A stretch of DNA of 64,000 bases from contig OX335643.1 in NCBI GenBank assembly GCA_946894095.1, positions 7,365,036-7,429,035 on the forward strand, written 5' to 3'. This stretch comes from Incurvaria masculella (lineage: Eukaryota; Arthropoda; Insecta; Lepidoptera; Incurvariidae). The translations under genes were made by a program, and so were the position numbers. The notes below the pieces were generated by a model that saw only the letters and a program-made list of their open reading frames with translations, ran no database searches and had not been told where the DNA came from. Positions 27,160-63,417 of the stretch are shown here, piece by piece. How positions within the stretch are numbered: the stretch's first letter is position 1; each line of letters opens with the position of its first letter.

Positions 27160-28444
27160 ATAGGTCGGGGAAAAAGTCTTTTCGCATTATAGTATGTATG
27201 AACTTGTAATAAAATCTCTTTGGCTATACTATTTGTATCTGGCTGGTTTTGGTATCATTGAAAGTTTAAATTTTAAAGAACATAATTCCAAATTCAAATT
27301 AGGAAAATGTGTGATTCTCATTTGTTTTTCGTACTGTCAAAATGAGTGAATCTAATGAAGAAATTCGATACATTTTGAAATTTTACTACAAAAAAGGTAA
27401 AAATGCAACGCAAGCCGCGAAAAAAATTTGCGATGTTTATGGACCTAGTGCAGTGTCTGTGAGAGTAGCACAAATTTGGTTTAAGCGTTTTCAATCCGGA
27501 AATTTTGATGTCAAAGATGCACGTCACTCTGGTCGCCCTATTACGGATAAAATGGATGCCATTTTTGAAAAAGTGGAGCAAGATCGGCATATCAGTAGTT
27601 ACGACGTAGCTGAAGAACTAGGAATTGACCACAAAACAGTTTTGGCGCATTTGAAAAAAACTGGGTACACAAAAAAGCTCGATATTTGGGTACCTCACGA
27701 GCTCACTGAAAGAAACCTAATGAACCGTGTACTCATTTGTGATTCTTTATTACGACGTAATGAAACCGAACCATTTTTGAAGAAGCTGATAACTGGTGAT
27801 GAAAAGTGGATCACGTACGACAAGAACGTGCGAAAAAGGTCGTGGTCAAAGGCCGGTCAAGCTTCACAGACTGCGGCGAAACCCGGGTTAACTCGCAACA
27901 AGGTGATGCTGTGTGTGTGGTGGGATTGGAAGGGCATTATTCATTATGAGCTGTTACCACCAGGCAGGACCATCGACTCTGAACTCTACTGCGAACAACT
28001 GATGAGATTAAAGCAAGAAGTTGAGAGAAAGCGGCCGGAATTAATCAACAGAAGGGGTGTGGTTTTTCATCATGATAACGCTAGACCTCACACATCTTTA
28101 GCCACTCAGCAAAAACTAAGAGAGTTTGGCTGGGAGGTGTTAATGCATCCGCCGTATAGTCCTGACCTTGCACCTTCAGATTTCCACCTGTTTAGGTCTC
28201 TTCAGAATTCTTTAGGCAGTGTCAGGTTAACATCACGAGAGGACTGCCAAAACCACTTGTCGCGGTATATTGATCAGAAGTCCCAATATTTCTATAGCAA
28301 TGGGATCATGTCCCTACCTACAAGATGGCAAAAAGTTATCGAACAAAATGGTACCTACATACTTTAGTTAAATGTAAATAAACCATATTAAATTTTTTTT
28401 TGAATTTTCTTAAAAAATGCGAAGAAACTTTTTCCCCAACCTAA
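27160..28444 (+). mobile_element. mariner transposon, apparently complete (1285 bp)
   Basis: Flanked by TA at 27158-27159 and 28445-28446. Terminal inverted repeats ATAGGTCGGGGAAAAAGTCT on the left and the complement of TTAGGTTGGGGAAAAAGTTT on the right match over about 28 bp with a few differences. It encloses one uninterrupted transposase frame. Length and TA target site are typical of mariner. Confidence 0.95.
27342..28367 (+). CDS. mariner transposase, 341 aa, DD34D
   Basis: Cut-and-paste transposase. The N-terminal ~115 residues hold the two helix-turn-helix units that bind the terminal repeats (VAQIWFKRFQSGNFDVKDAR, then HKTVLAHLKKTGYTKKLD). The linker has the family signature WVPHEL. 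The catalytic triad is D153 (TGDEKW), D245 (HHDNARPH) and D280 (SPDLAPSDFHLF), with 34 residues between the last two. It starts at the only suitable ATG after the 5' terminal repeat, and 341 residues is normal for the family (about 345). No stop or frameshift is visible, so it may be recently active. Subfamily not assigned. Confidence 0.96.
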   Translation: MSESNEEIRYILKFYYKKGKNATQAAKKICDVYGPSAVSVRVAQIWFKRFQSGNFDVKDARHSGRPITDKMDAIFEKVEQDRHISSYDVAEELGIDHKTVLAHLKKTGYTKKLDIWVPHELTERNLMNRVLICDSLLRRNETEPFLKKLITGDEKWITYDKNVRKRSWSKAGQASQTAAKPGLTRNKVMLCVWWDWKGIIHYELLPPGRTIDSELYCEQLMRLKQEVERKRPELINRRGVVFHHDNARPHTSLATQQKLREFGWEVLMHPPYSPDLAPSDFHLFRSLQNSLGSVRLTSREDCQNHLSRYIDQKSQYFYSNGIMSLPTRWQKVIEQNGTYIL

Positions 28445-41348: not shown

Positions 41349-41549
41349 CTAAGCAACAGCCTGCGCGTCCCCTATGGGCGTGAGGAACCTATGCTCCACC
41401 ATCTCCAGCCTCTCGCTGATGTCATTCAGGTTGGAGCGCAGTTCTGAGGTTGAGTTCGTGATGAGGTATTTGATGTCCAGCAACTGCTCGTCGATAGATG
41501 TCAATGCGGCGCAGCCGACACAGTTGGTAGAACTGGTCGGATCTTCGTG
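41349..41549 (-). CDS. Ig/SH3 gene, last exon: coiled-coil C-terminus
   Basis: After TTTTTTACAG it reads HEDPTSSTNCVGCAALTSID, EQLLDIKYLITNSTSELRSN, LNDISERLEMVEHRF and ends at TAG 41349-41351 (67 codons, phase 0). Spaced Leu/Ile residues suggest an amphipathic coiled coil. The CVGC pair just before it could lock a multimer (inference). One NST glycosylation sequon. No membrane segment. Confidence 0.8.
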   Translation of the reverse strand, partial: HEDPTSSTNCVGCAALTSIDEQLLDIKYLITNSTSELRSNLNDISERLEMVEHRFLTPIGDAQAVA

Positions 41550-44500
41550 CTGTAAAAAAGTGAGATAATATTTGAGTCAATATTCAAGGTGGATGCCAAT
41601 TCACAGCCGGTTAATCATCATACGGCCAATGGAAAGGCGTCAGAACAGCCGCCATATTTCGTGCAAAGAAACGTGCCATTTCACGTAAGACATGAATTTG
41701 GTAATTTTAATCCAAGGCAAGCCTGATCGTAAAGATTTTAAGGCGAAATCTGCGTTACCGGCTCGAATTTGAGTTCCACAGCTCTGACGGCTGCTAGCTG
41801 GTCGTCGCTATTTCTCAGCTCGCAGGTGTACCAGCCCGCATCCTCAGGCTTCATGTTGGTAATCTGTAATGTCAAGGGAAGGAACACTGTAAGTAAAGTA
41901 GGAAGGTGTGAAGCGGAGAAGGACGGGTGCAGAGATAGTTAGGGTTCTGAGTATGGCGAACAGAAAGCAGTTAAATTACACGACAAGGTGACAGCCACGG
42001 TAAAAAAGTTTGAGTCAAATATATTTATTTATTCTTTTTTAAAACCCAAATCAATTGTATTTTCATTGCGTAATTTCGGATAACAGTATTTCAATAATTC
42101 AAGGTTTTCCGTTGAGAAAATCGCTTTGACAATCGCTATAAAAGCGGTTTTCTCGACTGAAATAACCATTATTCCTGAGGAAGGAATTCCCAGAATGGTA
42201 CTACATGGAACTTTTACGTTTTAAATCTTTTGCTATTTGGAATTAACGATGCATCCCATCTTACCTCCAGAGTATTAGTTGTCGGTAGGTAGTCTCGGAA
42301 GATCTTGATGCGTGGGTTCCTAACCTCAAGGTCGACACCACGAGAGATCCTCACACCTCCCTTAGCCTGGTAACAACAGATATGTTTGATAATTAAATAG
42401 GTTATTTTTCAGAAAAGTAACATTTTCATTCTCTATTCGGTAATCACTATCGTATTACAGAAATATACTATGATAATATTATATACACGTGTTTCTCTTT
42501 GCTTAACTGGTAAGTTTTAAAATTACACTGCTAATGAAATAACCAGAATGTTGAGTCAAAGTCTTTTAAAGGAAGAAGGATTGTGTAAACAAATTAAATA
42601 TTGAAATTTCATCAAAAAATTGCTTTTTAAAATCATATATGCAAATATAAATAATATACTTACAGCTTTTGAAACCTACTATCCTCTGGGTTTTTTATAG
42701 CCAATGACAGATTTTCGACTTCAGGACCTGGTAACCCTGTCGAGATAAGTTAAAAAAAATGCGACAGGTTATAGATGCATACATAGGATGTTTCGGGATT
42801 GGTAGGAAAACTTTGGGAATGTAACCGATTTACTTAATTGGCTCTATTTTAACGTTAGGAAACGGTTGTTATTATTGGAATTACAGCTTTTTTTTTTTAT
42901 GTGACTGGACATGGATGGCTAATACCACACCTTCTGTCATGATATTAGCCCAACACATCACATGGGAACTAGGTGCCATGCCAGGACCTTCCTGTTATTG
43001 CACGGCTACATTGAACTGGATGGAAAACACGGACAATTTTCATTGCCGCTTCGACCATCATTCATCCAATGCGGTGGTACCAACCCGGGCGGGATTAACC
43101 CTACCACCTAGTAAGTAAGGAAGGGGACCTACAGTTCAACGTAGAATCCGAACCAAGGCCAGCCTCTCAACGGTCGAATGGTCACCCATCCAAGACCAGA
43201 CCGGACCCAGCGTTGCTTAACTTCGGAGAGCGATCGCCGAAGTGTCGCGCCACTGGGCCACTGAGGCTGACAACCACTGGGCCACTGAGGCTGACAGAGC
43301 TAGCTAGATTCACTGACAGAGATTTTTTTAAGTGAACTAGCCGTGTGCGAACTTCGAGACAAAGGAGTATCAGTATGAGATGCGAGAGGATGGGTATAAC
43401 TGAACTGTTCTCGATTATGTGGTAACTATGACACACTTACCCAGCTCAGGTACAAATCGCTACTGGACATGTTAACGGTACATATTAGCTTCTCGCCGTT
43501 GCCAACTCTTTCCTTCTTGATTATGGTGGTGGCGTAGGATCTGACACAGTCTGTTGTGACAAGGAATATTTTGATTATTTTAAGTATCCTGAATGAGAAG
43601 TTTTGATGAAACATATGTGATGAAAAAGTTATTTCATTTCACAAATTGGCAAGTTTTTAGTTGTGTCTATCTCGCAAATTGTGGATTGTCTCAGTGGCCA
43701 CATCAGGAACCGAGTCTAACACACCTGATACCTATGGTAGTTATGCTATTATTATGATGTTAACTTTACACACCACTAAATACATACTTCATTTATTTCA
43801 TGTGGCATAATTAAAAGGTTTTTCCAAAATTTGTCTTAAATTACAATTTTATCATTTTAAATTTAAATTAAATTTTAGTATGACACTTGTTAAGTTAAGT
43901 TTAGTCTTCAATAATTATTTTAAAAACTCACAATTTTTTTTTACATTTTTGCATCACAGAAGTAATGCATCCAGCCATCTAGATCAAAGTACCCGAAGAT
44001 CAAATCAGGTTCTCGTTCCAAATTTTCAAGGTTATTAATCAAAAGCTAAATGATTTAGAAAGACTCTTCCCAAGTTATAACCATTTACCAAGCACAAACT
44101 AAGACTTATCAAAATACACAATTTTACAATAAATTTTAGACTTTATTAAAATAAATAAAAAATCATAGTTTAATACTTTTTTGTCCTAGCTACTTTAGTA
44201 TTATTTAAATTTTAAATATGATTGGTGTCTTATAGCATGCGGGTGAAGATGTTCACACCAATGCAATATATATCATCACCCTAGACGCCACATATTGGAC
44301 TTTGACCCACTAACGTTTTCCTTGTAAATTGCAATGCCAACTGTGGCGCAGAAGGTGATGCGCTCTGTGCATTTGATGGGGGTATGTAAAGTTGTTAGAA
44401 ATTTGTAGAAATATTTACGGAGTGAACCTGAAATGTAATTCGTAAAAGTTAAGTTTGCTTCAAGCAGCTTCAAGCAGGTATGTAGAGAAAGATATGAACA

Positions 44501-47500
44501 TGGCTGTAGAAGAACGGAAAAAATGTACTGTAGTCGTACAAAATGGAGCTCTTCATCACTCTATTGTTAAATTAGTCTGTGTAAATAACCCTCCCAATTT
44601 TCTGGTGCCAGATAGCTTTTGGAGAACGAACATTCAAAGCTGTTGTAACTGATGGCTGGTTACAGTCTATTACTACTAGAACTGTAACTAACAGTACGTT
44701 GTGCTTACTTGAGGATATCTCCGGACCGCTTTCACCGACTGAGGCGATCTTGATGACAGCCCTGGGGTTGAAGGTCCATGTAGCGTTGCACAGTTCCACA
44801 CTAAATTGGTCACCAAAATATTCAGACGATACTCGTCCTATTTTTCCCAAAGACTGAAAAAAGTTGTCTGATTAAAGTCAGAAACAATCTGATCAAGAAC
44901 TATTTAGAGTAAGATATCAAACAATAACCTAATGTCATTCTATTTTCTAAAGTTATCAAATATACTGCCACATTGGTGTTGTCTATAGCATTATTATTGA
45001 GCAGGCTTAATACGAGTTTTCTATCATCATAGATTAATTAGTCCCTTTAAAGCCCGATTGCAGGAAGAGACTGCTGAGTTAATCAATATTCAAACGCGTT
45101 ACTTTTAAACAACCGCTTGAAGTTCACTCAGCTCCCTTCCATACTGTCCATTAAAAGTGTCTTGTTTAATCAAACGTTGACGGTGATTTAGATGTTGTGT
45201 CCTTTCGTGCACTCGGCCCTAAATGGCTTCGGTTAACTGCTTCGCTAACTTACTCCATTTAAAGAACCATAATAAGGTTTACACCCGTCTATGAATTTGA
45301 TATATTTGTGTGAAAACATATTTTCTTAGAGGGAAGAACTCAAAATACAGTTCCTTTTTTTTAACCGTTTTTATTTAGTTTGATCTCTTATATTTGTTTT
45401 AAATATAACTGGCGGCTTCTAAGTGATGAGCTTAAAAATATTGTTTTTATATTTAACCGATATCAGTGCACAGACGCTGTGCACTGCTCATGTAATGTGA
45501 AAATCTTTATGGTGAAAAGAAAGCATGGTGACCTATGCATGTAATTGTAGATTTTGAGGTAAATGGGCGTAAAAACGGACAGGACAAATACCATTTTTTG
45601 TCGATTTTGACCTTTGTCGAGCTTTCTTTAGTTCTCATTATTTCTGAATAATACTTGAAACATAACTTGAGATCATTATTTTGAAGGCGAATTATTTTGA
45701 AACATGGCGATTGAGTTTTTTTTTAATAAAAAAGAAGTTTCAATTATTTTGGTATTAAACAATTTTCGTCTCATCCGACTACATCTCATTGATATACACA
45801 GAGTCAATGTGATGGAGTCGGATGGAGATATCAATTTATTAACACCGTAAATATTTATTATTACCTATTATTTACAATATATTAAATTTTTTCTACTTGT
45901 TGGTTAAATTACATAATCCTATGAAATATAATCAAATTTAACCTAAAACTGGATAGAACCTTAGTGAGGTCCCACCTGGGACTAATCTTATAAGGCCACT
46001 CCGAGCTACAAAGACAGAAACCGCCGAAAGATTCCCGTGTTCGAGAATAGAACCGCCCAATATGGATATCGATTATTTCTAGATTTTTGGCATAATTTTT
46101 TGGAACAACGCTGTTTGTGGACATAACAATTGGCACGGTGGTGGTTTTCCGTGCACGCCATATGGCGATAACCTCGTGGGCCTGTTCATCAGTTTCTCAT
46201 TTTCGGCCTTGTCGAAGTTTTCGCCATGTGTTATTGTTATGTCTACGAGGAAAATATCGTTGGACTTGGGATCGACCAAGAAAATATCAGGCTTACTGCG
46301 CTTAATTGTCCTATCGGTTTATATAGGTCGATCCCAATAGAGCTTATTGTTATTGTTATTTATAAATACTAGCAGCTTGAAGCTGATGCATGTTTCATGT
46401 TTCTTAAAAAAAGTTTAATACTTTAAAATACCTCATCCATTTCAGGGACCCACTCTCCGTGATTTACTTGGAGCTGCTCTACGGTCTCGGCGTCGTTGAG
46501 CACCCACACTAGGTCCCCTTTTGCGAACCTGTCCCCCGTCGCTGCCTCTGTGGTCGTCATGAAGGTGGTTGGCAACTGGTTGGCCTCAAATTTCGTAGTT
46601 GCGGTAGCCGCTACTTTGCCGCCTGTCGTCACCTCACAGGTATACCAGCCCGAGTCGTCCGGCTTTATATTGTCAATCTTAAAAAAGACAGCATGTTTTT
46701 AAGTACATCGTAACTACATAACGCTTATTCGTCCTTTCTAATTCTACCATCGCTCAACGTGAACGTGGAGGCAGTGGGAAACTGGATCGTACTCCCTGCT
46801 CAGTTATTTACCCAAGTGCAACTTATGGCCCACAATTTAGGTTGTATTAGGTTATGATAAAGTTACAAACAAATTTTAAAGTTACAATCACCGTGTATCA
46901 TCTGCATTCGTGGTTGCAACATCCAAAAACGCGTCTTTGCTTTTCTTCAACACTGTAACCTCTTTGATCAAATATTACGAAAGCCACGACGCAGATTTCG
47001 CTTGTATATTTTCTTAAGTTAGTTATAACGCTTTCTCTAACTCTGTAACTCATCATATTTAGGAAAAAAATCTGCCCGACATCAGTCCTAAACGACATTG
47101 ACCCGAGCGGAGACGGGTACTTCAGCTAGTGTATTATACAGATTATCTGCTAATGGCATGATATTTCTTTTAATAACCGAATTAACTTATTTCAAAACAG
47201 ATTTGGTCATGGGCATTTGTACCTGCAGGGTGTATCTTGTGTACGAAAAGCTAAACTCTTCAATTATGTTGAAATTCTCCATTTCACTGATGTCATCATG
47301 AGAGATGCGTTTGCTGTCCTTTTTCTGTTAACAATAATAATGTGCTTTGTTAATATATTTAAATATTAATAATTATTTTTGACAAAAAAAAACACAATAT
47401 ATACCTACAAATCAGAACTGTATATGTATGCATTAAAATGGTTTTAATTGATTGGAAACAACACTTACCCATATGACATGTGAGTCGACAGGTATGTTGA

Positions 47501-50500
47501 CCACTGCTCCACTGTATGCTGACAGTCGCGTCGGAATGGACACAATCTGATGGAATGAGAAATGGCGGCATCACTTGTGTTATGTCTGGTTTCACAAAAA
47601 TCCCAAAGTACCCTTTCAGTTAGACCATAAAAATACGCAATGTAACCGAAAGTTAATGATCGGGTTTCAGGTAGTTGGAGGTGGTTAAAACGGGGATTAG
47701 TCATGTTTGGCTGCTCGTAAATTGGGCATACAAATTATGATATTTATTGCATGCTTAGGTAATCATAGCCTTTTTGTAATAGTGTTAAAAACGTACTGCA
47801 AACGATTTCATTTTTGCGACCAATTCTGACATAGGAAAGACATAGGAAGAAACTTCTAAACCCTATTTTCACCACCTCTAGTTACCTGAAATCCGATAAG
47901 TAACTTACGGTTACATTGCATATTTACAGCGTGTAACCGAAAGGTACATAACTTTGGGATTTTTGTAGCTGGAGGTGGTGGAAACGGGCGTAAAACGACT
48001 GCATGAGTAGAATAGGAGTAAAAACTTTTTTTTTTTTATTTGATTTGGTCAATCTTGAAATAAATGGAAATAAAGCGATGACAACATTTAGTAACCTTGT
48101 TCATGGCTTGGACATTTTGTGCGACTAGGCGATATATATGCATGAAGCGAACACTATTTTAAGTCACAGATGAAAGTGAAACGCTTTCGCCTGACGTACT
48201 CAAACATCAAATGTTATGTTATGTTAATTAGAATATTAACATTTTAGTATTAATTAATAGTGCAATTAGAGTAATTAGAAAGAGAAAACACTGAATGACT
48301 CGTGGCTGTCATTTCATAAGTACGAAAGTTCACCTGTAAGTCACCGGTGTCTCACAGGTATAGTCCCACATACGTTATTTTGCGCCTGGCTGAGGGCACC
48401 ACTGTCTTTTAAGAGTTACCACATGAATAAAAAATACCCCATTGATCGGGAAAATATTTACAGCCTGCTGTAAGAAAAACATTTGAGGAAATGAAAATTA
48501 CTATTTTAGGTAAAATGTTATTCAAAATATAAAGAAATTTGATCTTTCATCATTTTAATAAAAAAATGGGTGTTTTAGAAGTCAGGTTACTTACTACCGC
48601 TAGTTCTGTTTTCTTGAATTCTATGAAGAAAATAAATCCTAACGTCAATCCCAGTGTAATAACTCTGCCAAATGATATTTTTTGCCATCCAATTTAGATT
48701 AGACTTTATACATATATTTTTTTATTTCGTTATAATCGAACAAGGAGTTTTCGAGTACAGCTCGCGATGGTATCAAACCACTACTACTACTACCCTTCCG
48801 GGAAAACGGCGTAATGGTATGTATGTATGGCTAACCTACACACACAAACATATCTTCACAAACTAGTAATTACTTACCAAAAAAATACCCTCAGCTTAAA
48901 ATAAATAAGCAGTGGGTAACTTGCATTGTTATAATGGCAACACGTTCCCGTACCGCAAAGATGACAGTTCAAGATTGCGACCGTTTAGTTCCGATTTTGG
49001 CCACGCGCAAAAAGAGCTATGTGGCACTCTAAGAACCTCATGAGCAGACCCCATAATCATAAAACGAATCATGAAAGTCATGGCACAATGGGTGTCTTGG
49101 CGCACTCATTGGCAGTTTGGCGAACTGATTGATGAAGACTTTTATTTTGTACCCGTAATAATGTGCAAATCGACACAAGAAAGTGAAAGCCAAAAAATCG
49201 TGGTTGCGTTGGGCGTTGCTATTTTTTCTATTTTTGACGAAATCGTCCTAGAAGCCACTTTTAATCGCCGCCGAATCGTCTTAGACGAATTGTCAAAGAC
49301 GCATGGACCTTGGCTTGGAAAAAATCAAGTTCCACTAAAGGCAAATATTATGCTAGTATTCAGCTTAAAATCCCAGTAAAACCATGGTTCCATATATATG
49401 CAGAATTATCAAAACCGATACCTCCACTATATGTCGTCTGAGATTAGGACATAACTGCTCTCCTGTTCATTTGGCCAGACTCCGGCTTTATTTGATCAAA
49501 CTAGATGTCTGATGACCATTGGCATTGTAAAATTGTGTCGGTTTCTAAGTTATAAGGTCCGAAAGTTCGAATTTTTCGCGCGTTGATTACGTAATGATAA
49601 AGTAAGAACATCTTAAAAAGATTAGTCATCAGACATAGCTTATTTAATAAAGATTTATAATGTATTTGGCTTTTGTTAGATTTTTGACTACAGCGGTCGT
49701 GGTTTACTTTTAGCTATAAGTCGTTTTGAAATTAAAATTTCCGTAAATCTTACCAAATCATACGCTATGCACATTGTCTTTTTTGTGGACATGTTGCATC
49801 TTCCTCATCACGGAGCCTGTCTTATTCTTTGAAACATAGTCGGTCCCAGAGCGCAACAGCACGGTTTTGTACCGTGCCCGCGAATGGGTTGGGCCCGCCG
49901 CGTTGGGCCACCTTAAAGCTTATTTCAAAATTTGTAAATATTAATAATATTAAATTATGAATATCAGTTCAAAATATTTTACTCACTTTATCAGATTGTT
50001 TTTTGTTGTTATTATTTCAACAAAGAATAGTGTTTTTGATCTTATAATTTTACTAAAGAAGTAATGTTTTTGTATTTGTATTTGTATAGAAGTAATTTTC
50101 ATATCGTGGAGCCCTTTAGACTGAGACGCTGGCATAAATACGCAACACACACGCGTTATTGCCAAAATGGCCTTCCACCCGTGGTGTGAAGTCGCCGAAA
50201 AAAAAGGAGAAGAAGATCGTCTCAGAAGTGATCCAAAAAATTGCGGCGCCATATTCCAACGAATAGTATTTGTTATTAGTATAGCTTTTCTTTACAAGAT
50301 GGCGCTAGGCCCGTCATCTTTCAGCTAATAGAGCCGTATTTTTTGCAGTAATAGTAGTATACTAATTAGTAATAGGGTCTCTTCTACCAAGTATTGATTA
50401 GCTTAATCCTCACATTAAAGGGCCTTTCTTACCATCTCGTAATCGATAACAGTACAAGATAATCGGCACTTTAGCAATAAAGGCCCTTTATGTGTCGATT

Positions 50501-56500: not shown

Positions 56501-59500
56501 CATTCCGCCAGACATACCGTCGCTTGTATGAAGACAAACCAAGAAGGCGATGGTAGAAGCAGCGTTTACGTGCATAGCCTCCATGCTATGCACCTCTGAT
56601 CTGCAGGCCTATTCCTGAAATTCCGTAACCAGGAATCAGGAATCATGAGTCTACAAAACAGCTTTTATAGCGGTTTTCAAATCGATTTTCTTGCCGAAAA
56701 GAATCCGAAGCATAGTATTTCAATTTAATCAAGGTGATCGGTCGAAAAAATCGATTTGAAAACCGCTATAAAAGCGGATTCTAGACTCAGGATTCTTGAT
56801 TTCGGAATTCCAGGAATAAGGCCTGCTGTACGGTGCCTAAGCTGGATCCAGTAGGTAAAGGGCGCCTTCATTGGCCGAAAGAACGTCCTGATTCGAAAAC
56901 GATTCAAATTGGTCGGAAACCTGTTCGACAGGTTTTACGTAATTCAAAATAGGTCCGAAACCTATTTTATATGCAGATATATTTGTGTAAGGGGTTTCTT
57001 TATTGCATTTTATTTGTTCCACCTAATACTGTGACTATTTCAATAAGCTTGTTTTCTTAAATATAAAATATATTCGACAGTCTTCATACCTGCAGAATGA
57101 TTGTTTTCAAAAAATAATAGGTTTGGACGATGATGCGAGGATCACGATCATTGTATTTGTCATAATCACGAGAGATCCGTTTGCCGTCCTTAATCTGTTG
57201 ACAAAAACAATGATTATCATTGTGTAACACATACATGCTAACAAAACAGGAACAATACGTTAATTAAACACTTACCCACAACACATGAGAGTCGTCTGGT
57301 TTGTTGACCACCGTGCATGAGAGTTGCAGGTTGCCATTAAATATGTCCTTCGTAATGGTCACGGTCGCTTCGGATTGGATGCAGTCTGTGAAATAAAAAC
57401 GTTACGTCGCTTTTATTTCAAACTTTTGTCTCCTGTCAACTCTCCAACGCATATGTGTGGTTGTAATACAGTGTGATTTAATTTTAACTTACCACCACCT
57501 TACATCAATCGTATATGTTTTACTGTGAAAACCCGAACTACGGTAAATCCTAAGATTCACAAGTACAACTGAAGATTTACAGTCGTATTCAGAGGGAATT
57601 GTAAAAATTTCGTACGCGGACTAGCACCGGACTAAACATACGAAATGCTTTTTTCCGGCAATAATCCCCGGATTAAAGTTAGTTAGCCCACTCTGAATAC
57701 TAACTACTGTTAATGGTTAAAATCCGAACTGTTCTAAGATCATCGTTAATAATTAACCAAGGCACAATTTTGCAAGTGGCAAGTGGTCGGATTTTAATAA
57801 ATTTATTTTATTAAATAAATTCTCATTCACCCTAACTCATAATTATATTGTCGTGTACAGGAGGTTATGTGTGTAGGATTGATACACCCACTCAGAAAAC
57901 TACCACAATTACGTGATAAACTTACCTGATGATATCTCCGGTGTACTGTTCCCAGCCGGGGCCAGTTTGGTGACGGAGTCGGGGCTGTACCACCACATAC
58001 CACCACATATTTCAACCGCAATATCTTTCACTGCGTCCACCATTGTAATTTTTCCAATTTTTCCCAGCGTCTGCGATAAATAATTAAACAAGATTGTAAC
58101 ACCTGCTGAACAACCGGAAAAGAGAAAAGTCAAATATTTGTTGTCATATATCGTAATGTTACTCACAATTTTCAGAAATTTCCAGTAAAAATTTTATAGA
58201 TATTTCATTTCACGTAATATATTTTAAATCATAACATGCAGGACTGACATTTTTGCCAAGTTAGCCAAAGCGTCCTTAAAAATAAAGACAATAATAAATT
58301 ACGTAATGTAGTAAAATTTCAGTTTTTGCTTTTTGAAAAACTCTTATAAATGGCTGTGCGGAGAGACCAAAAATACTCCGAAAAGCAAAATTTACCTCAC
58401 TTCACGAAACCACGCTCAGCGAGGCATCATACCAGCAGATTTGTGGACTGTTGCTGAGCTATCAAGCTTGTTTAAAGTTATGTTTGAAGACACCCGACGG
58501 CAGACAGTTTCATAAATATGAGTCTCAGTAACATCTACATTTGAAGCATTGTAATCAGATTTTTGAAAATAATCAGCAAACGTTTTTGGTCGTGACATTT
58601 GTCGGAAGCAGAGGCATCACAATGAAAATGGTGCTGAAACTCAAATTAATGAGATAACGCTAATGGCGTATCCAATTGTCAAGAAAGTTCCATATTACAT
58701 ATTTCGTTATAAATACGTTCCGAAATGTCTTGTAAAAAAAAATTCAAAATTCATTTATTTGCAAATCGTTACAACAGAATATAGATTTCTAATTCCTGCT
58801 CTCTACTTACATCGTCAAAAATTTACTGTATTATTAAATTATTACATTATATTATATTATTACATTACATTAAAATATTATCTTAATTAGCCGTTAATTA
58901 TAAAGCCTAGCTGTGTAAGCTTTAGGATCCATGTCAAAAGTAACATTGTAAAAGATAGTTAATTTCGGTAGACCACGGTAGAAAGTCAGCGTTTATTTCT
59001 AGAGTTTAAGAGACTGGTAAGACAAGAGCTTTGACAGCAGGACAGTTGGCGCTACAATTAATCCCGTCATTAGACCGTCACAACTAACCTTTTTCATTTC
59101 GTAAGTGAATCCTATGCGACTTCCAAAGCGCCTCTTGATGATGATGATGATTTTTGCTTGATGGCCTCTGTCTACTGTTGTGTAGACAATTTTGCCAGTG
59201 TCGTGTTGTTGGGTGACTTTTGGTGTCACCCTATTTTAACTCTGCCAATTACTGTGGAGATTCATGTAGGAGTGGTCAATTTATTAAAAAACTTTGCGTG
59301 AACAAATTTTACCTATCTGAGTTTCGTATGTGCTATTAGTAGGGAATAAGAGGGATGTAATAACGACTCCTGGGGAACAAAGAAAAAATACATGGTTATA
59401 GTCTCAAAAAAGGGGGAAACTAAAAATTACAGCTTAATGTTATGGTTTTTGATAAAATAGGACAACACTTTTAGGTAGGATGGATGAGAAAGGGTCAGAA

Positions 59501-62500
59501 GGCAGCTTATATTGGTAGGGAGAGGGATTTTAAATCTTGGAAGTATTGTGTACAGTGATGGAGTATTTAAAGGGCAGGAGAAGAACATATGGTTTAGGTC
59601 TCCCTCCGCGAGCCCACATTCGCAGAGGGAGGAGTCCCTTACCCGTAACTTTGCTAACATCACAGGGGTGCAGCAGTGTCCTAAACGCATTCTACAAATT
59701 ATAGAGGTTTCACTCTTCGACATATATTTGTGTTTCGAGAACCATGGCTTGATAGGGATATCAGTTTGCAGTTGAGCATAGTGGCGGCCCCTCTCTTTCT
59801 GCGTTCGGGACCATACGCGACACCAATCCCTACGTAGCGTGACCTTGGGAAGGGAGAGTAAGTCATTGGGGTATACTATGAATGTCCTTCTGTCTCCGGT
59901 CAGTATTGCCTCTTTAGCTAGGGTGTCGACGAGTTCATTGCCGTCAATGCCTACATGACTCGGTACCCATGCAAGCAGGACTTCAAGGTTTTCTTCAAGG
60001 CATCCGACCAGGGCTTCTTTAATGTTGAGGATAATTTGGGAAATTTTGGCATGAAATGGATATTGATGGAGGGCTTGGAGGCAGCTTAAGGAATCCGTCA
60101 GTATAACTGTCTTGGGAAATTTCTTACTTCTAATAAAGTTGATTGCCTCACAGACAGCAACACATTCACCTGTGAAAACAGATGTCAAAGCGCCTCTTAA
60201 CTGTGTCCTCGTCGGAGAGCACCTGCACTAAGTCTCCTTCCTCAAACTCTCCCCTCGCCGCATCAATCGTTGTCTCTCTCTCCATCGTTGCTTTTCTCTC
60301 CGTCGTTGTCTTTGTTTCCGTCGGCGTTTCTGTCTCCGTCGTCGTCTCTGTCTCCGGGTGGGATGAACTCATCACGGTCGCTTTGGATTGGGTGCAGTCT
60401 GGTGGAATGGAAACGTTATGCCTATTATATTTGTAACTTTTGACGTATGCGTTACTGTAAAAACCAGAAATACGGAAAATCTAGATTTCTAAGATTAAAC
60501 GGGTGAAGGTATTCAGAGTGAATTGTAAAATTTTAGTACGCGGACTAGCGGCGGACTAAACATACGAAATGCAATTTTTCCGACGATAATCCCCGTATTA
60601 AAGTATTTATTTTATTAAATAAATTCGTTACTCGTCGCCAATGGTATGTATGCACTTTAAGGATATCACGGGAATCAGGAACAATGAAACGCGTGCTTGC
60701 GAGATAAACAGTGGCAACTCACTCTTTATTAAAGGCATGTCGGGTAGGTCGCGAAACACACACATGTAAGCCTACGCACACACTTACGCAGGCCCCGCGT
60801 AGCAACGTGCATACCATCATTCAACCTAATAATTAATTATATTGTGGTCTACAGGCGGTTATGTGTGTACAATTGATACACCCGCTGAGAAAACTACCAC
60901 AATTACATGATAAACTTACCTGAGGATATCTCCGGTGTACTTTTCCCAGCCCGAGCCAGTTTGGTGACGGAGTCGGGGCTGTACCACCACCTACCACCAC
61001 ATATTTCAACCACAATATCTTTCACTGCGTCCACCATTGTAATTTTTCCAATTTTTCCCAGCGTCTGCGATAAATAATTAAACAAGATTGTAACACCTGC
61101 TGAACAACCGGAAAAGAGAAAAGTCAAATATTTGTGTGAAAATTTTATAGATATTTTATTTCACGTAATATATTTTAAATCATAACATGTAGAACTGAAA
61201 TGAAATGAAAATGAAAAAATACTTTATTTGCAGCCATACGGTACAAAAAGGCGGAAATTAATGCCATAAGGCATTCTCTACCATTCAACCTTAGAGATGT
61301 AGGAGAGGTGCAGTGAGGCGGGCAAAAAAAATAACCGTAAAACAAAATGAATTAGCGAAAATATTAACTAATCCTAAAAATAAGGATTTATATATGAAAA
61401 TAAATTACATACAAATATGTACATACACTTAAACATATTAATAGATATAAGATACAAATACACATATATTATTTTAGATCATATGAACAGATTTACACAT
61501 AAAAATATATATATATATATATATTTGATAAATAGTGGTAAAATAAAAAATAAACTCTTGATTTTTGAGAACAATGTGACAAGAAACAATCAGGAAGTAA
61601 GGAAATGACATTTAAGACGCTCTTTAAATATATTAATTGACTGAGATGTACGTACATCAAGTGGAAGCTGGTTCCACATACGTGCAGCGCTGACAGCGAA
61701 AGAATCTGTGTAGAATGAAGAACTATGTCCCGGAATATCAAGAAGCAAATTATATGAGGATCTGAGAGGTAGGCCATGAGAACAGAGGAGTTCTATGCTG
61801 TCAGTAAGATATTTAGGAGCAGCTGGATTATTCAATAAACCAAAGAGAAGGGAAAGAACATGGGTATTTCTGCGTTTACGAATGTCAAGCCATTTAAGTG
61901 AGGCGCGAAAATTAGAAATATGATCATTCTGATATGCGCCAGGTGTGCAAAATCGTCCTTAAAAATAAAGACAATAATAAATTACGTAATGTAGTGAAAT
62001 TTCCGTTTTTTATTTGTGAAAAACTGTTCTGAGAGACCAAGAGTACTCCGAAAAACAAAATGTACCTCGCCTCGCGATACCACGCTCAGCGAGGCACCGT
62101 GCCAGCGGATTTGTAGACTGTCGCAGAGCTATCAAGCTTTTTTAAAATTATGTTTAAAGACTCCAAGGTTATATGATTGAGGATAAACACCCTACGGCAG
62201 ACACTTTCATTAATATGAGTCTCAGCGACATCTACATTTGAAGCATTGTAATCAGATTTTTGAAAATAATCTGCAAAAGTTTCTGGTTGTGACATTTGTC
62301 GGAAGCAGACCGTCACAACTAACCTTTCTCATTTCGTCAGTGAATCCTATGCGACTTCCAAAGCGCCTCTTAACTGTATCCTCGTCGGCGAGCACCTGCA
62401 CTAGGTCTCCTTCCACAAACTCTCCCCTCGCTGCATCGATCGTTGTCTCTCTCTCCGTCGTTGCATCTCTCTCCGTCGTTGTCTCTGTTTCCGTCGGTGT

Positions 62501-63417
62501 TTCTGTCTCCGTCGTCGTCTCTGTATCCGGGTGGGATGAACTCGTCTCACCGACGATGTACCCCGGGACAGTGCGGGCGCTGACCTTCACCACAGCGATG
62601 GCGGCTTCATTTCCATCTTGATCCACAAGTTCACATTTGTACCAGCTCAAATCCTCAGGTTTTACGTCATTTATCTGTGTGCAGTTCCAAACGAGCTCAA
62701 TGTTTTATATGGTACGAGTGATGCTGAAACCTCTCAAAATCCATGGTACTCGTAATTATTATTATAATAGGGTTATAATTCAACCCTAGACTAGAGGAAC
62801 ACATATGTGCGCAAGACTTATATGATTTTCTCATGGATATTAAAAAAAATATCATCAAAATCGGTTCACCCTGGCGAAAGTTATGAGGTAACAAAGATAA
62901 AAAAAAACATACAGACGAATTGATAACTTCCTCCTTTTTTGAAGTCGGTTAAAAATCACTCACATGGACACATGTTACAACTAAACCGAACTTATAACGA
63001 ATTAAAGCGAAGGAAATACTTTTTCACCAACCAGGTAATTGACACTTACAAAGCAAGTGTTACGTGCAATTTTAGTGAACAGTTTTAAAAAATAGACTTG
63101 ATGCGTTCATAAAATAGTTTAAAAAAAAAGTTCACTACCAATTATGAACTAAAAAGTACATGTATCCGTTTTAAGCTAATAGTGTACTTGAATCATAATA
63201 ACAGTAATTATAAAACCGATATAATAACAAATAAAATTAAAATGAAGAGCCGTTGGCTGAATACACGTATTTTATTCTACCGAATGTAGAATCCAATGTA
63301 AAAATGATGTGTCCACATTACCTGCAGTGTCAAGATTTGCGATGCCCCTTCGAGACGCTCTTCAATGTCAACTCTACCAAATAAATGTTCGTGATAGATG
63401 ACTTCGTCCCCCTTTAC
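41349..63417 (-). CDS. Modular Ig / Mind-bomb-type SH3 repeat protein, 17 exons, 5' end outside window
   Basis: Not recognised as a named gene. Exons in transcript order: 63417-63322, 62674-62324, 61064-60920, 60398-59089 (broken), 58070-57926, 57385-57276, 57194-57090, 52493-52200, 50696-50552, 47546-47469 (frameshifted), 47324-47223, 46677-46432, 44853-44709, 43550-43441, 42366-42265, 41863-41759, 41549-41349. A module is four exons: DC plus strand-B Cys to the C-strand Trp; strands C'-E; strands F-G (EDAGWYTCEL), linker and SH3 first half (GDLVQVL-DEDTV); SH3 second half (LGKIG...W-Y-P--VTKLA). SH3 blocks match the repeat domain of Mind bomb ligases (Pfam SH3_15). Introns are GT-AG with consistent phases. 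Extra Cys residues and Ig domains suggest a secreted or surface protein. No signal peptide or membrane segment is in view. Confidence 0.82.
41759..41863 (-). CDS. Ig/SH3 gene, module V: Ig strands F-G
   Basis: Reads ITNMKPEDAGWYTCELRNSD and then DQLAAVRAVELKFEP. D-GWYTC is the Ig strand-F signature with the second disulfide Cys. Phase 0/0. Unlike the other modules, this exon stops without the linker and SH3 half. Confidence 0.88.
42265..42366 (-). CDS. Ig/SH3 gene, module V: Ig strands C'-E
   Basis: Encodes 34 residues in phase 0/0: AKGGVRISRGVDLEVRNPRI and then KIFRDYLPTTNTLE. Equivalent to 57090-57194 (IKDGKRISRDYDK...). GTTACCAG acceptor, GTAAGA donor. Confidence 0.85.
42888..43165 (-). 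mobile_element. SINE, antisense, in Ig/SH3 gene intron
   Basis: A T-run at 42890, GTGACTGGACATGGATGGCT, GCACGGCTACATTGAACTGG, GGAAAACACGGACAATTTTC and CCCTACCACCTAGTAAG. The tRNA-like head is missing; unrelated sequence follows. Confidence 0.8.
43441..43550 (-). CDS. Ig/SH3 gene, module V: Ig strands A-C
   Basis: Reads CVRSYATTIIKKERVGNGEK, then LICTVNMSSSDLYLSW. Has the module-start Cys, the strand-B Cys (LICTV) and the strand-C Trp at its last codon. Opens in phase 1 after 44709 and ends in phase 0 at GTAAGT. Confidence 0.87.
43560..44700. other. Intron between modules V and IV
   Basis: AT-rich, with no exon, RNA or clear repeat that I can support. Confidence 0.5.
44709..44853 (-). CDS. 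Ig/SH3 gene, module IV: SH3 second half
   Basis: Reads SLGKIGRVSSEYFGDQFSVE and then LCNATWTFNPRAVIKIASVG. LGKIGRV...W-FNP--V-K is the second half of a Mind bomb-type SH3 repeat. 145 bp, phase 0 to 1, like its three paralogs. TTTTCAG acceptor, GTAAGC donor. Confidence 0.88.
45900..46320 (-). mobile_element. LINE C-terminal domain fragment
   Basis: The minus strand reads PKSNDIFLVDITITHGENFD and then KAENEK; in another frame PIVMSTNSVVPKNYAKNLEI. These match the conserved post-reverse-transcriptase region of some LINEs (LVDI-IPH--N--KA-EK; VP-V-GA-G-VPK). Broken by frameshifts. Confidence 0.65.
46432..46677 (-). CDS. Ig/SH3 gene, module IV: Ig F-G, linker, SH3 first half
   Basis: Reads IDNIKPDDSGWYTCEVTTGG, a Thr-rich linker, then KGDLVWVLNDAETVEQLQVN and HGEWVPEMDE. 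Of all the modules this is closest to Mind bomb repeats, which carry GHG-W---M before LGK-G. The acceptor is a slightly unusual TTTTTTAAG. 82 codons, phase 0/0. Confidence 0.87.
47223..47324 (-). CDS. Ig/SH3 gene, module IV: Ig strands C'-E
   Basis: Reads KKDSKRISHDDISEMENFNI and then IEEFSFSYTRYTLQ, 34 codons in phase 0/0. KRIS aligns with the same position in modules III and V. GTTAACAG acceptor, GTACAA donor. Confidence 0.83.
47469..47546 (-). pseudogene. Ig/SH3 gene, module IV: first Ig exon, 32 bp shorter and out of frame
   Basis: Splice sites are kept (CCATCAG acceptor, GTAAGTG donor) and both ends align with 57276-57385 (GACGCGACTGTC; GTGGTCAACATACC...CATGTCATATGG). The middle is 32 bp shorter, so the start frame (DCVHSDATVS) no longer meets the end frame (VVNIPVDSHVIW), and the strand-B Cys block is lost. 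If included, the transcript shifts frame. It could also be an assembly error. Confidence 0.75.
47586..47699. mobile_element. Small MITE, partial copy
   Basis: AAAATCCCAAAGTACCCTTT, GTAACCGAAAGTTAATG and GGTAGTTGGAGGTGGTTAAA match the family at 16737-16872. One arm is shortened. It starts 40 bp upstream of the broken exon 47469-47546. Confidence 0.65.
47856..47994. mobile_element. Small fold-back MITE, best copy
   Basis: CCCTATTTTCACCACCTCTA pairs with TGGAGGTGGTGGAAACGGG. Core AGTAACTTACGGTTACATTG / CGTGTAACCGAAAGGTACAT. Same family as 16737-16872. Confidence 0.8.
48000..48990. other. Intron sequence without recognised features
   Basis: AT-rich, with small repeats such as CACTACTACTACTACCC near 48780. 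No exon seen. Confidence 0.45.
48990..49484 (+). mobile_element. LINE RNase H-region fragment, sense
   Basis: VKDAWTLAWKKSSSTKGKYY, ASIQLKIPVKPWFHIY and then TICRLRLGHNCSPVHLARLR, with frame breaks, parallel the same stretch of the ORF at 59427-60188 (RTQKERGRHYAQLQTDIPIK, ICRMRLGHCCTPVMLAKLR). It is cut off where the MITE at 49486 begins. Confidence 0.75.
49486..49916 (+). mobile_element. TTAA-flanked MITE, copy 3, one end missing
   Basis: From CTTTATTTGATCAAACTAGA to GCGTTGGGCCACCTTAA, aligning with 6175-6618 in the same orientation. The first ~110 bp are absent, replaced by the LINE fragment ending at 49484. Confidence 0.88.
49917..50551. other. Intron sequence before the module III SH3 exon
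   Basis: AT-rich. AAAGGGCCTTTCTTACC and AATAAAGGCCCTTTATGTG (about 50416 and 50476) form a short inverted repeat. No exon seen. Confidence 0.45.
50552..50696 (-). CDS. Ig/SH3 gene, module III: SH3 second half
   Basis: Reads TLGKIGRVITQDIVNDVYVR, ICGTEWWYRPNTITKLASAG and SSMPEVSS. 145 bp, phase 0 to 1. Keeps the extra Cys before the Trp pair. GTAAAT donor. Confidence 0.88.
51075..51572. mobile_element. 498-bp fold-back MITE with nested inverted repeats
   Basis: Ends TTAGGCCTGG and CGGGCCTAA. GGTTTTTCAATAGTCAGATA is matched by TATCTGACTATTGAAAAATC-type sequence at the other end. An inner pair, CTGATCGGGCTAGCTCGATT plus TTTCACCATTG-type arms (51200-51245 and 51460-51500), nests inside. Confidence 0.88.
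52200..52493 (-). CDS. Ig/SH3 gene, module III: Ig F-G, linker, SH3 first half
   Basis: Reads IIDIMPEDAGWYTCELRTDV, an acidic EEEED and Ala-rich stretch, then YGDVVQVFSDEETVKKRFEI and LPFPDDMRQ. 98 codons, phase 0/0. The linker differs completely from the Thr/Glu linker of modules I and II. Confidence 0.88.
52685..52925. repeat. Imperfect ~130-bp tandem duplication in intron
   Basis: GCGCTTCTTCAACGTCAAAT, AGCTGTAAAGAGATCCAATT and TGCCAAGCATCA near 52695-52770 recur diverged at 52838-52910 (GCACTTCGTCAAGGACAAAT, TCTGTAAAGAGATGCAATTG, GCCGAAGCATCA). Confidence 0.7.
53140..55765 (+). mobile_element. Degenerate LINE with endonuclease and reverse transcriptase
   Basis: Lies in the intron between module III exons 57090 and 52493, antisense to the gene. 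Endonuclease blocks: FTDTWLNDDINNAAF, EGGGVMIAIS, VIIILGDFNF, then NRSLDLVLTN and LDPHHPQLEI. Reverse transcriptase: LDQNKSAGPDGIPSIFSKRC, WKEARIVPVYKMG, NYRPISLLS, DFSSAFDKVNHFLLLKKL, SGVPQGSHLGPILFTLFIN, LFADDLKLF. Several frame breaks and an internal deletion make it non-functional. The tail region ends in AAATAAATAAATAAATTTT near 55765. Jockey/CR1-like by block sequence. Confidence 0.9.
55790..55985 (+). mobile_element. Second LINE C-terminal fragment
   Basis: Reads RWDDDIKGISGKQWFRTAED and then REAYVQQWTQTR, resembling the C-terminus found in many insect LINE ORFs (RW-DDI---G--W---A-DR--W---E-YVQQWT). It sits directly after the tail of the LINE before it. Confidence 0.7.
55990..56600. 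other. Intron with a GC-rich island
   Basis: 56220-56530 is much more GC-rich than its surroundings (GCCGCCCCGCCGCCGCGCC at about 56445). It contains long open frames on the minus strand with no recognisable domain and no splice-consistent place in the Ig/SH3 gene. It may be a repeat or a relic of a GC-rich exon. Confidence 0.35.
56603..56826. mobile_element. 224-bp fold-back MITE
   Basis: GCAGGCCTATTCCTG at the left pairs with CAGGAATAAGGCCTGC at the right, and CTTTTATAGCGGTTTTCAAA with TTTGAAAACCGCTATAAAAG. Near-perfect palindrome around a short loop. Confidence 0.88.
57090..57194 (-). CDS. Ig/SH3 gene, module III: Ig strands C'-E
   Basis: Reads IKDGKRISRDYDKYNDRDPR and then IIVQTYYFLKTIILQ, 35 codons in phase 0/0. 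A canonical Ig C-C'-D-E pattern. TCAACAG acceptor, GTATGA donor. Confidence 0.87.
57276..57385 (-). CDS. Ig/SH3 gene, module III: Ig strands A-C
   Basis: Reads CIQSEATVTITKDIFNGNLQ and then LSCTVVNKPDDSHVLW. Module-start Cys, strand-B LSCTV and strand-C Trp all present. 110 bp, opens in phase 1, ends in phase 0 at GTAAGT. Confidence 0.88.
57926..58070 (-). CDS. Ig/SH3 gene, module II: SH3 second half
   Basis: Reads TLGKIGKITMVDAVKDIAVE, ICGGMWWYSPDSVTKLAPAG and NSTPEISS. Differs from the module I exon 60920-61064 at 4 of 48 residues, and the flanking intron is also nearly identical. Its partner first half is broken. Confidence 0.85.
58340..58530 (+). repeat. Interspersed repeat family B, copy 3 (in duplicated segment)
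   Basis: CCACGCTCAGCGAGGCATCA and GTTGCTGAGCTATCAAGCTT. Its sister at 62030-62215 was made by the segmental duplication, not by independent insertion. Confidence 0.7.
58614..59074. other. AT-rich insert specific to duplication copy A
   Basis: Absent from the sister copy between AAGCAGA and CCGTCAC. Contains TTATATTATATTATTACATT low-complexity runs and a LINE-tail-like TTCATTTATTTGCAAAT. No coding content. Probably a mobile insertion of unknown type. Confidence 0.55.
59124..59136 (+). repeat. Target-site duplication, left copy
   Basis: CAAAGCGCCTCTT, identical to 60186-60198, flanks the LINE insert. The intact paralog at 62324-62674 has this sequence once. Confidence 0.9.
59137..60185 (-). 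mobile_element. 5'-truncated non-LTR retrotransposon (RNase H end) inserted in an exon
   Basis: 1049 bp bounded by 13-bp duplications. On the minus strand it starts inside an RNase H domain and ends in an ATC-repeat tail next to the left duplication. A 5' truncation with a simple-repeat tail is typical of target-primed integration. It probably belongs to an RNase H-bearing clade such as I or its relatives. Confidence 0.9.
59427..60188 (-). CDS. LINE ORF2 C-terminus: RNase H and zinc-knuckle-like tail
   Basis: 254 residues truncated at the left. RNase H blocks: TGECVAVCEAI (catalytic Glu), ILTDSLSCLQAL (Asp), LAWVPSHVGIDGNELVDTLA (His, Asn, Asp). The first Asp block is missing through truncation. 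Then RMRLGHCCTPVMLAKLRVRD and CECGLAEGDLNHMFFSCPL, a Cys/His motif common after RNase H in these elements. The frame is uninterrupted, so the insertion is young. Confidence 0.88.
   Translation of the reverse strand: MTSVFTGECVAVCEAINFIRSKKFPKTVILTDSLSCLQALHQYPFHAKISQIILNIKEALVGCLEENLEVLLAWVPSHVGIDGNELVDTLAKEAILTGDRRTFIVYPNDLLSLPKVTLRRDWCRVWSRTQKERGRHYAQLQTDIPIKPWFSKHKYMSKSETSIICRMRLGHCCTPVMLAKLRVRDSSLCECGLAEGDLNHMFFSCPLNTPSLYTILPRFKIPLPTNISCLLTLSHPSYLKVLSYFIKNHNIKL
60186..60198 (+). repeat. Target-site duplication, right copy
   Basis: Same 13 bases as 59124-59136. In the coding sense it reads AAGAGGCGCTTTG, part of the KRRFG codons of the SH3 half. Confidence 0.9.
60920..61064 (-). CDS. Ig/SH3 gene, module I: SH3 second half
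   Basis: Reads TLGKIGKITMVDAVKDIVVE, ICGGRWWYSPDSVTKLARAG and KSTPEISS. 145 bp, phase 0 to 1. Phase and sequence show it follows 62324-62674. Confidence 0.88.
61196..61957 (-). mobile_element. LINE 3' fragment inserted in the duplicated intron
   Basis: The minus strand holds a ~121-codon open frame: FCTPGAYQNDHISNFRASLK, DIRKRRNTHVLSLLFGLLNN, SAARMWNQLPLDVRTSQSIN, a Jockey/CR1-type reverse transcriptase C-terminus, then a 3' UTR with an AT run (61505-61526) and a TTTCA-repeat tail. The sister intron at 58070-58330 lacks it, so it inserted after the duplication. Confidence 0.82.
62030..62215 (+). repeat. Interspersed repeat family B, copy 4 (in duplicated segment)
   Basis: CCACGCTCAGCGAGGCACCG, CGCAGAGCTATCAAGC and GACTCCAAGGTTATATG. 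Partner of 58340-58530. Confidence 0.7.
62324..62674 (-). CDS. Ig/SH3 gene, module I: Ig F-G, Thr/Glu linker, SH3 first half
   Basis: Reads INDVKPEDLSWYKCELVDQD, then a linker of TETETPTET-type repeats of about 30 residues, then EGDLVQVLADEDTVKRRFGS and RIGFTDEMRK. 117 codons, phase 0/0, ACACAG acceptor. The linker may be O-glycosylated if secreted (inference). It is the intact paralog of the broken exon 59089-60398. Confidence 0.88.
62800..62955 (+). repeat. LINE-tail-like repeat, copy 2
   Basis: GACTTATATGATTTTCTCAT, ATCAAAATCGGTTCACCCTG, GTTATGAGGTAACAAAGATA and CCTTTTTTGAAGTCGGTTAA. Same family as 39500-39835. Confidence 0.65.
63322..63417 (-). CDS. Ig/SH3 gene, module I: Ig strands C'-E (first visible exon)
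   Basis: Reads VKGDEVIYHEHLFGRVDIEE and then RLEGASQILTLQ, 32 codons in phase 0/0, in the position of 57090-57194. TGCCAG acceptor, GTAATG donor. The matching first Ig exon must lie beyond 64000. Confidence 0.8.

What the first reader, a model, noticed from the sequence alone, without database searches (positions are those of the whole stretch)
41349..63417. A multi-module gene that alternates immunoglobulin domains with Mind bomb-type SH3 repeats
Seen: repeated exon sets in which Ig hallmarks (strand-B Cys, C-strand Trp, EDAGWYTC) are followed by GD-V-VL-D--TV-----------M--LGKIG-------V-I-G--W-Y-P--VTKLA. Known: the second pattern is that of the SH3-like repeats of Mind bomb E3 ligases (Pfam SH3_15), which are cytosolic. 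Inference: a chain of Ig and SH3 modules in one protein, probably extracellular, is an architecture I have not met. It could be a lineage-specific adhesion, immune or matrix protein. Module IV keeps the HGEW---M signature and makes the relationship most visible.
Basis: partly seen in the sequence, partly recalled or inferred. Interest (0 to 1): 0.88.

Follow-up and report, generated by a model that had tools for sequence, protein, structure and literature searches.

The report
Immunoglobulin beads alternating with Mind-bomb SH3s
A stretch of what is likely a moth or butterfly genome carries repeated exon sets that fuse immunoglobulin domains to a domain best known from the ubiquitin ligase Mind bomb; the predicted protein is likely a secreted or surface chain of binding beads, a domain pairing for which our limited searches found no precedent.

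Summary
On the minus strand, 63417 to 41349, lie five related exon sets. Sets I, III and IV encode immunoglobulin (Ig) sequence followed by an SH3_15 domain (in set I the Ig part rests on alignment to the others); set V is Ig plus a predicted coiled-coil tail and stop; set I runs off the window. The join needs no splicing inference: one uninterrupted exon (46677-46432) matches Ig at residues 1-29 and Pfam SH3_15 at 51-80. The SH3 parts match human MIB1 (4tse; 1.4e-24 for spliced IV, 2.6e-13 for III) and resemble the second, not the first, of its two REP repeats. Set III is a complete phase 1-0-0-0-1 cassette. Fourteen exons (749 codons) hold no internal stop; random placements average 42.

Corrections: set II has lost its Ig core and its SH3 exon is split by a likely retrotransposon with a 12-bp target duplication; set IV's first Ig exon lost 32 nt and its frame. 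I-III-V still reads through. Location is untested: the 5' end lies outside the window and the genome server did not complete. Best reading: a multivalent, likely secreted or surface binding protein. None of 5 protein hits and none of the papers listed showed Ig with SH3_15; both searches are of limited reach.

The parts
63322..63417 (-). Module I exon 2 (Ig middle strands), 96 nt, phase 0-0
   Evidence: AG/GT borders, open frame
62324..62674 (-). Module I exon 3: Ig end, Thr/Glu-rich linker, first half of SH3_15, in one uninterrupted exon
   Evidence: (SH3_15 with exon 4); alone no significant Pfam match
60920..61064 (-). Module I exon 4: second half of SH3_15, ends in phase 1
   Evidence: SH3_15 22.7 bits alone, cut-off 24
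60187..60398 (-). Module II remnant: start of Ig exon 1 joined directly to the linker and SH3 part of exon 3 (Ig core missing), up to the insert
59137..60186 (-). Insert with an RNase H domain, likely a retrotransposon, splitting the module II SH3 exon; the 12 bases AAGAGGCGCTTT stand on both sides
   Evidence: (RNase_H 4.6e-08)
59089..59136 (-). Module II exon 3, part after the insert
57926..58070 (-). Module II exon 4: second half of SH3_15
   Evidence: SH3_15 20.7 bits alone, below cut-off
57276..57385 (-). Module III exon 1: first Ig strands with strand-B Cys and C-strand Trp
57090..57194 (-). Module III exon 2: Ig middle strands
52200..52493 (-). Module III exon 3: Ig end (DAGWYTC), linker, first half of SH3_15
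   Evidence: alone no significant Pfam match
50552..50696 (-). Module III exon 4: second half of SH3_15, ends in phase 1
   Evidence: alone no Pfam match
47469..47546 (-). Module IV exon 1, 32 nt shorter than module III exon 1; frame broken and strand-B Cys lost; AG sites at 47518, 47506 or 47503 would keep frame with a truncated Ig
47223..47324 (-). Module IV exon 2: Ig middle strands
46432..46677 (-). Module IV exon 3: Ig end plus first half of SH3_15 with HGEW...M; the clearest fused exon
44709..44853 (-). Module IV exon 4: second half of SH3_15
   Evidence: alone 15.2 bits, below cut-off
43441..43550 (-). Module V exon 1: first Ig strands
42265..42366 (-). Module V exon 2: Ig middle strands
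41759..41863 (-). Module V exon 3: Ig end, no SH3 part
41349..41549 (-). Last exon: NCVGC motif, heptad-patterned predicted coiled coil, stop codon

Best explanation
The minus strand carries repeated exon sets that fuse Ig domains to SH3 domains resembling the second REP repeat of Mind bomb, and the predicted protein is likely a secreted or cell-surface, multivalent binding protein. Shown by sequence: the Ig-SH3 fusion, the resemblance to the second REP repeat, the open frames, the matching phases of the intact exons and the lesions in modules II and IV. Inferred: an Ig gene captured a REP-type SH3 between phase-1 introns; the Ig-SH3 unit multiplied as a cassette; the C-terminal Ig and coiled coil bring chains together; the SH3 beads, whose REP relative in Mib1 binds short tails of Notch ligands, act as peptide- or protein-binding sites. 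A cassette that begins and ends in phase 1 can be skipped without loss of frame, which would let the gene tolerate the broken modules II and IV.
For: Fused exon with both domains. SH3_15 and Ig hits on spliced modules. Second-repeat resemblance: alignment scores 111-180 to REP repeat 2 against 28-72 to repeat 1 (with free end gaps repeat 1 rises to 51-95, still lower), and 100% ultrafast-bootstrap separation from repeat 1. Complete 1-0-0-0-1 phase pattern in module III, same phases in intact exons of I, IV and V. I-III-V translates without a stop. Ig Cys pair 62 and 61 residues apart in modules III and V. No stops in 749 codons. dN below dS wherever both could be computed, e.g. exon 4 III/IV 0.526 and 1.591, exon 3 III/V 0.288 and 0.955. 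Hydrophobic residues at 8 of 11 a/d positions of the tail in the best of 7 registers tried. In PMC11887331 the results 'strongly suggest' that the C-box of Delta binds the REP domain of Drosophila Mib1 (passages).
Against: No signal peptide seen (5' end outside the window). By eye, no transmembrane or GPI signal in the tail. Three N-glycosylation sequons in 751 residues, about what I would expect by chance. Sets II and IV are damaged. dN/dS in exon 4 of I against III is near 0.8 and in exon 2 III/IV near 0.9. The best Ig matches in PDB are titin (IV, V) and myomesin (III), recalled as cytosolic. The tree puts I and III beside mollusc SH3_15 repeats (69%) and IV beside MIB repeat 2 (42%), so direct descent from Mind bomb and a single capture are not established. 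No Pfam Ig hit in module I. No expression data, no ortholog.
Confidence: 0.48

Rival explanations
1. It would be a cytosolic scaffold, like titin, myomesin or palladin, in which Ig domains and SH3 domains are both normal intracellular modules; the REP-type SH3 may keep binding Notch-ligand tails and act as a Mib1 competitor.
For: SH3_15 is described from cytosolic ligases (PMC11701565, passages; the cytosolic location is recalled). Titin is the best Ig match of modules IV and V and myomesin of III. The Cys of the second MIB1 repeat is kept in all four SH3 copies.
Against: Complete Ig Cys pairs in III and V, though cytosolic Ig domains may keep them too. Extracellular Ig proteins (DSCAM, DCC, Robo, Dpr-interacting proteins) match as well. 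The Thr-rich linker and the tail with NCVGC fit secretion better (inference).
Confidence: 0.27
2. The locus is a decaying gene: an Ig-SH3 gene that once worked and is now losing modules through deletion and retrotransposon insertion.
For: Module II lost its Ig core and holds an insert; module IV exon 1 lost 32 nt. Retroelement frames lie in the locus. Exon 4 I/III dN/dS near 0.8.
Against: Zero stops in 749 codons over 14 exons; those 14 have AG/GT borders, or AG and a stop for the last; modules III and V are intact; I-III-V reads through; AG sites inside IV exon 1 could keep frame.
Confidence: 0.2
3. The Ig exons and SH3 exons belong to different, interleaved genes.
For: Introns are long (up to 4.6 kb) and hold mobile elements.
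Against: One uninterrupted exon carries both domains, with the same layout by alignment in two more copies; the exons lie on one strand in matching phase.
Confidence: 0.02
4. An ordinary insect family that public annotation already holds as uncharacterized proteins, so that the pairing is new only to these searches (not exclusive of the other readings).
For: Two of three protein searches scored only the 7997 and 7995 candidates sharing most words, and returned few animal Mind bomb proteins (two, none), so insects are poorly covered.
Against: No protein with both Ig and SH3_15 among the 5 hits, no hit among 33 candidates, and no such paper in the listings.
Confidence: 0.3

Closest known systems
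Mind bomb (MIB1) REP region, Pfam SH3_15 (PF18346); structures 4tse, 4xi6
   Same: Sequence of the SH3 repeat: GD-V, HGEW---M (module IV), LGKIGRV, W-x-x-x-P, K(V/L/I)A; closer to the second repeat than to the first
   Different: No ankyrin or RING match in the exons scanned; single SH3 copies separated by Ig domains; the gene ends in Ig plus predicted coiled coil
Immunoglobulin superfamily, I-set / Ig_3 proteins (titin, DSCAM, DCC, Robo type)
   Same: Ig hallmarks and Cys pair in modules III and V; phase-1 module borders
   Different: The Ig in sets I, III and IV is followed by a Mind bomb-type SH3 domain
Dreissena proteins P0004 and P0005 (SH3_15 repeats with an LSDAT/SLOG match)
   Same: SH3_15 of second-repeat type without a ligase domain recognised by Pfam; tree places modules I and III beside them at 69%
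   Different: No Ig match
Snail FREPs (Ig, coiled coil, fibrinogen)
   Same: Ig plus coiled coil layout (recalled; PMC7588048 seen in listing and start of abstract only)
   Different: No fibrinogen match here; Mind bomb SH3 instead

Membership tests
SH3_15 domain family | Pfam gathering score reached | tested here: met
   39.8 (I), 24.1 (III, marginal), 50.6 (IV), cut-off 24; module II exon 4 alone 20.7, not met
SH3_15 domain family | SH3-like fold | not tested
Inferred from similarity to 4tse
Immunoglobulin superfamily | Ig profile above cut-off with B/F Cys and C-strand Trp | tested here: met
   modules III and V. Module IV just passes V-set (26.2, cut-off 26) and I-set (24.9, 23.7) without strand-B Cys; module I (no exon 1 in the window) has no Pfam Ig hit
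Mind bomb E3 ligases | Ankyrin repeats and RING fingers C-terminal to REP | tested here: not met
   none in the module exons or the last exon, which ends in a stop
Mind bomb E3 ligases | N-terminal MIB/HERC2-ZZ-MIB/HERC2 | not tested
   5' end outside the window
FREP | C-terminal fibrinogen domain | tested here: not met
Secreted or surface Ig proteins | signal peptide | not tested
   The genome search did not complete, so upstream DNA could not be taken
Cytosolic muscle Ig proteins | intracellular location | not testable with these tools
   no 5' end, no expression data

The most novel reading that the evidence does not exclude
A ubiquitin ligase's Notch-ligand-binding domain was moved outside the cell: an insect lineage captured a Mind bomb REP-type SH3 into an Ig gene, multiplied the Ig-SH3 unit as a skippable phase 1-1 cassette, and uses it as a secreted, coiled-coil-clustered recognition protein whose module set varies by splicing and by gain and loss.
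Probability: 0.33. Interest if true: 0.8.

Novelty: new variant of a known kind. Interest (0 to 1): 0.58.

Why it matters
In the ECOD paper Pfam SH3_15 is illustrated by ubiquitin ligases (Mib1, KEG, ftr97), with 102 more instances in 48 proteomes, 'especially concentrated in plants' (PMC11701565, passages). Finding it in repeated fusion with Ig domains would show that a substrate-recognition module of a Notch regulator can become a stand-alone binding bead, and would offer a clear case of exon cassettes growing and decaying side by side in one gene.

Tried and rejected
Rejected: separate genes for Ig and SH3 exons (fused exon; layout). Rejected: membership in Mind bomb ligases (no ankyrin or RING match). 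Rejected: first REP repeat as the nearer relative. Unresolved: one capture or two, and whether Mind bomb itself was the donor. Module IV scores closer to MIB repeat 2 (180, 167) than to its sister modules (114, 109), module III about as close to a Dreissena repeat (124) as to MIB repeat 2 (128, 111); the tree groups IV with MIB repeat 2 at 42% and I+III with Dreissena at 69%. Exon peptides against the whole window gave no hit below E 0.05 outside the listed exons. Only three TGG|GT(A/G)(A/G)G ends lie on this strand above base 41000, all three the exon 1 copies. A candidate exon 42736-42664 would break the frame. Relatives in viral contigs: none of 27 pattern matches; in bacterial and archaeal contigs: none of 57. 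Protein searches: 3 hits of 7997 scored, two with Mind bomb domains and one Ig; 0 of 33; 2 of 7995, both Dreissena SH3_15 proteins without Ig.

Full report
WHAT IS THERE. The window is animal DNA, most likely from a moth or butterfly; that assignment rests on repeats recognised from memory, not on a call. On the minus strand, in transcript order from 63417 down to 41349, lie five related exon sets. Borders were placed by hand from the sequence and checked by script: the 14 intact exons have AG before them and GT after them, except the last, which ends in a stop. Modules III (four exons) and V (four exons) are complete. Module I lacks its exon 1, which must lie beyond base 64000 if it exists.

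IS IT MORE THAN CHANCE. The 14 intact exons hold 749 codons without an internal stop in the phase-matched frame, while both other frames of every one of them hold at least one stop. Twenty thousand random placements of the same exon lengths on the minus strand of bases 1-41000 gave a mean of 41.9 stops per set and no stop-free set. The exons were picked as open frames, so this control is generous to them. Pfam finds SH3_15 at 39.8, 24.1 and 50.6 bits in modules I, III and IV (cut-off 24) and Ig models above cut-off in III, IV and V. In module IV, V-set (26.2, cut-off 26) and I-set (24.9, cut-off 23.7) pass narrowly. In module I no Ig family reached E 1; its Ig part rests on the similarity of its exon 3 to exon 3 of III, IV and V. 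Module III's SH3_15 score is marginal, but its match to MIB1 structure 4tse is 2.6e-13; for module IV it is 1.4e-24.

THE FUSION NEEDS NO SPLICING. Exon 3 of modules I, III and IV is a single open exon. In module IV (46677-46432, 82 residues) Pfam places Ig at residues 1-29 and SH3_15 at residues 51-80, the latter above cut-off (25.2 bits) on this exon alone; the Ig part alone stays below cut-off. PDB search of the same exon returns MIB1 (6.4e-06) and Ig proteins such as DCC (0.001) side by side. Exon 3 of I and of III alone gave no significant SH3_15 or Ig match; there the assignment rests on alignment to the other modules and on the spliced modules.

MODULE LOGIC. Module III has four exons with phases 1-0-0-0-1. 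The intact exons of I, IV and V keep the same phases; II is split, IV exon 1 is broken, and V ends in a stop. A unit that starts and ends in phase 1 is the classic shufflable and skippable cassette (established knowledge). The SH3 domain is cut by an intron one residue before LGKIG in all four copies.

WHERE THE SH3 COMES FROM. Against two Mind bomb proteins (P0001, P0002), modules I, III and IV score 127-131, 111-128 and 167-180 to the second REP repeat, and 66-69, 28-37 and 67-72 to the first; with free end gaps the first repeat reaches 51-95. A 13-sequence tree separates all from the two repeat-1 sequences with 100% ultrafast bootstrap. It does not settle the donor: IV sits beside MIB repeat 2 (42%), I and III (together 99%) beside Dreissena repeats (69%). 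Those two Dreissena proteins carry SH3_15 without Ig and without a ligase domain that Pfam recognises, so the domain has left ligases elsewhere.

LESIONS. Module II has lost its Ig core: the start of exon 1 runs straight into the exon 3 linker. Its SH3 exon is split by an insert with an RNase H domain, with the 12 bases AAGAGGCGCTTT on both sides; a retrotransposon is the likely reading. Exon 4 of modules I and II is nearly the same (92% in protein, dS 0.06), so they are recent duplicates. Module IV exon 1 is 78 nt against 110 nt in III and V; the loss removes the strand-B cysteine and breaks the frame. Three AG sites inside that exon (47518, 47506, 47503) would keep phase and give a truncated Ig. 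Thus I-III-V reads through, and a chain with a partial module IV is possible; which is used is unknown.

SELECTION. Wherever both could be computed, dN is below dS: exon 4 III/IV 0.526 and 1.591, exon 3 I/III 0.457 and 1.038, III/V 0.288 and 0.955; dS above 1 is saturated. Exon 4 I/III gives 0.327 and 0.415 and exon 2 III/IV 0.549 and 0.603: weak constraint or fast change. For exon 1 III/V and exon 2 I/V no dS could be computed.

LOCATION AND FUNCTION. Evidence on secretion is weak both ways. Ig Cys pairs are 62 and 61 residues apart in III and V, but cytosolic Ig domains may keep them too. There are 3 sequons in 751 residues, about what I would expect by chance (rough estimate, no call). The Thr/Glu-rich linker of module I and the final NCVGC plus heptad segment (8 of 11 a/d positions hydrophobic in the best of 7 registers) fit a secreted oligomer without proving it. 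The best Ig matches in PDB are mixed: titin and myomesin, and also DSCAM, DCC, Robo and Dpr-interacting proteins. In PMC11887331 (passages) the REP domain of MIB1 is reported to bind the C-box of JAG1, and results 'strongly suggest' the same for Delta in Drosophila, while Mib1 without REP still rescues nearly completely; so the related region is a peptide-binding one of secondary weight. I commit to a multivalent, likely secreted or surface binding protein at 0.48, with a cytosolic scaffold at 0.27 and decay at 0.20 as main rivals.

LITERATURE. 14 papers hold the term SH3_15 (13 listed); by title the others listed are unrelated, and only the ECOD paper was opened (PMC11701565; passages). It names Mib1, KEG and ftr97 and 102 further instances in 48 proteomes. 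Five more searches aimed at Ig with Mind bomb or SH3 repeats showed no paper on such a fusion by title and abstract start: 20 of 13,218 listed; 20 of 36; 20 of 24; none found. (12 of 16) looked for silkworm Ig surveys and (10 of 99) for REP work. Passages of PMC11843878 concern C. elegans MIB-1. Most subscription papers are not in that library.

LIMITS. The own-genome search did not complete in 20 tries, so there is no 5' end, no count of further modules, no mib1 intron comparison and no ortholog. The protein collection returned few animal proteins and scored only word-sharing candidates, so the lack of an Ig+SH3_15 relative is weak evidence.

Noticed in passing
window 2200-13200 (+): Exon-like frames of a Ras guanine-nucleotide exchange factor of Son of sevenless type; one of them (about 3340-3560) matches human SOS1 at 2.6e-15, the others were judged by eye.
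   Followed up: partly
window 27318-28364 (+): Uninterrupted mariner-type transposase frame (349 aa; HTH_48, Transposase_1).
   Followed up: yes
window 53184-55440 (+): Retrotransposon fragments (reverse transcriptase 2.8e-12; endonuclease-like below cut-off) in the intron between module III exons 2 and 3.
   Followed up: partly
window 53499-53660 (+): Borderline Rfam U3 match (34.3 bits, cut-off 34) lying inside that retrotransposon; probably chance.
   Followed up: partly
window 43170-43300 (-): Stretch that resembles the 3' part of 5S ribosomal RNA (recalled), perhaps a 5S-derived short element; Rfam gave no match at E up to 0.1.
   Followed up: partly
window 42664-42736 (-): Exon-like stretch with AG/GT borders (73 nt) between module V exons 1 and 2; its use would break the frame.
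   Followed up: partly
P0004, P0005 (Dreissena proteins): Large mollusc proteins with repeated SH3_15 domains and an LSDAT-like (SLOG) region, another non-ligase home of this domain.
   Followed up: partly
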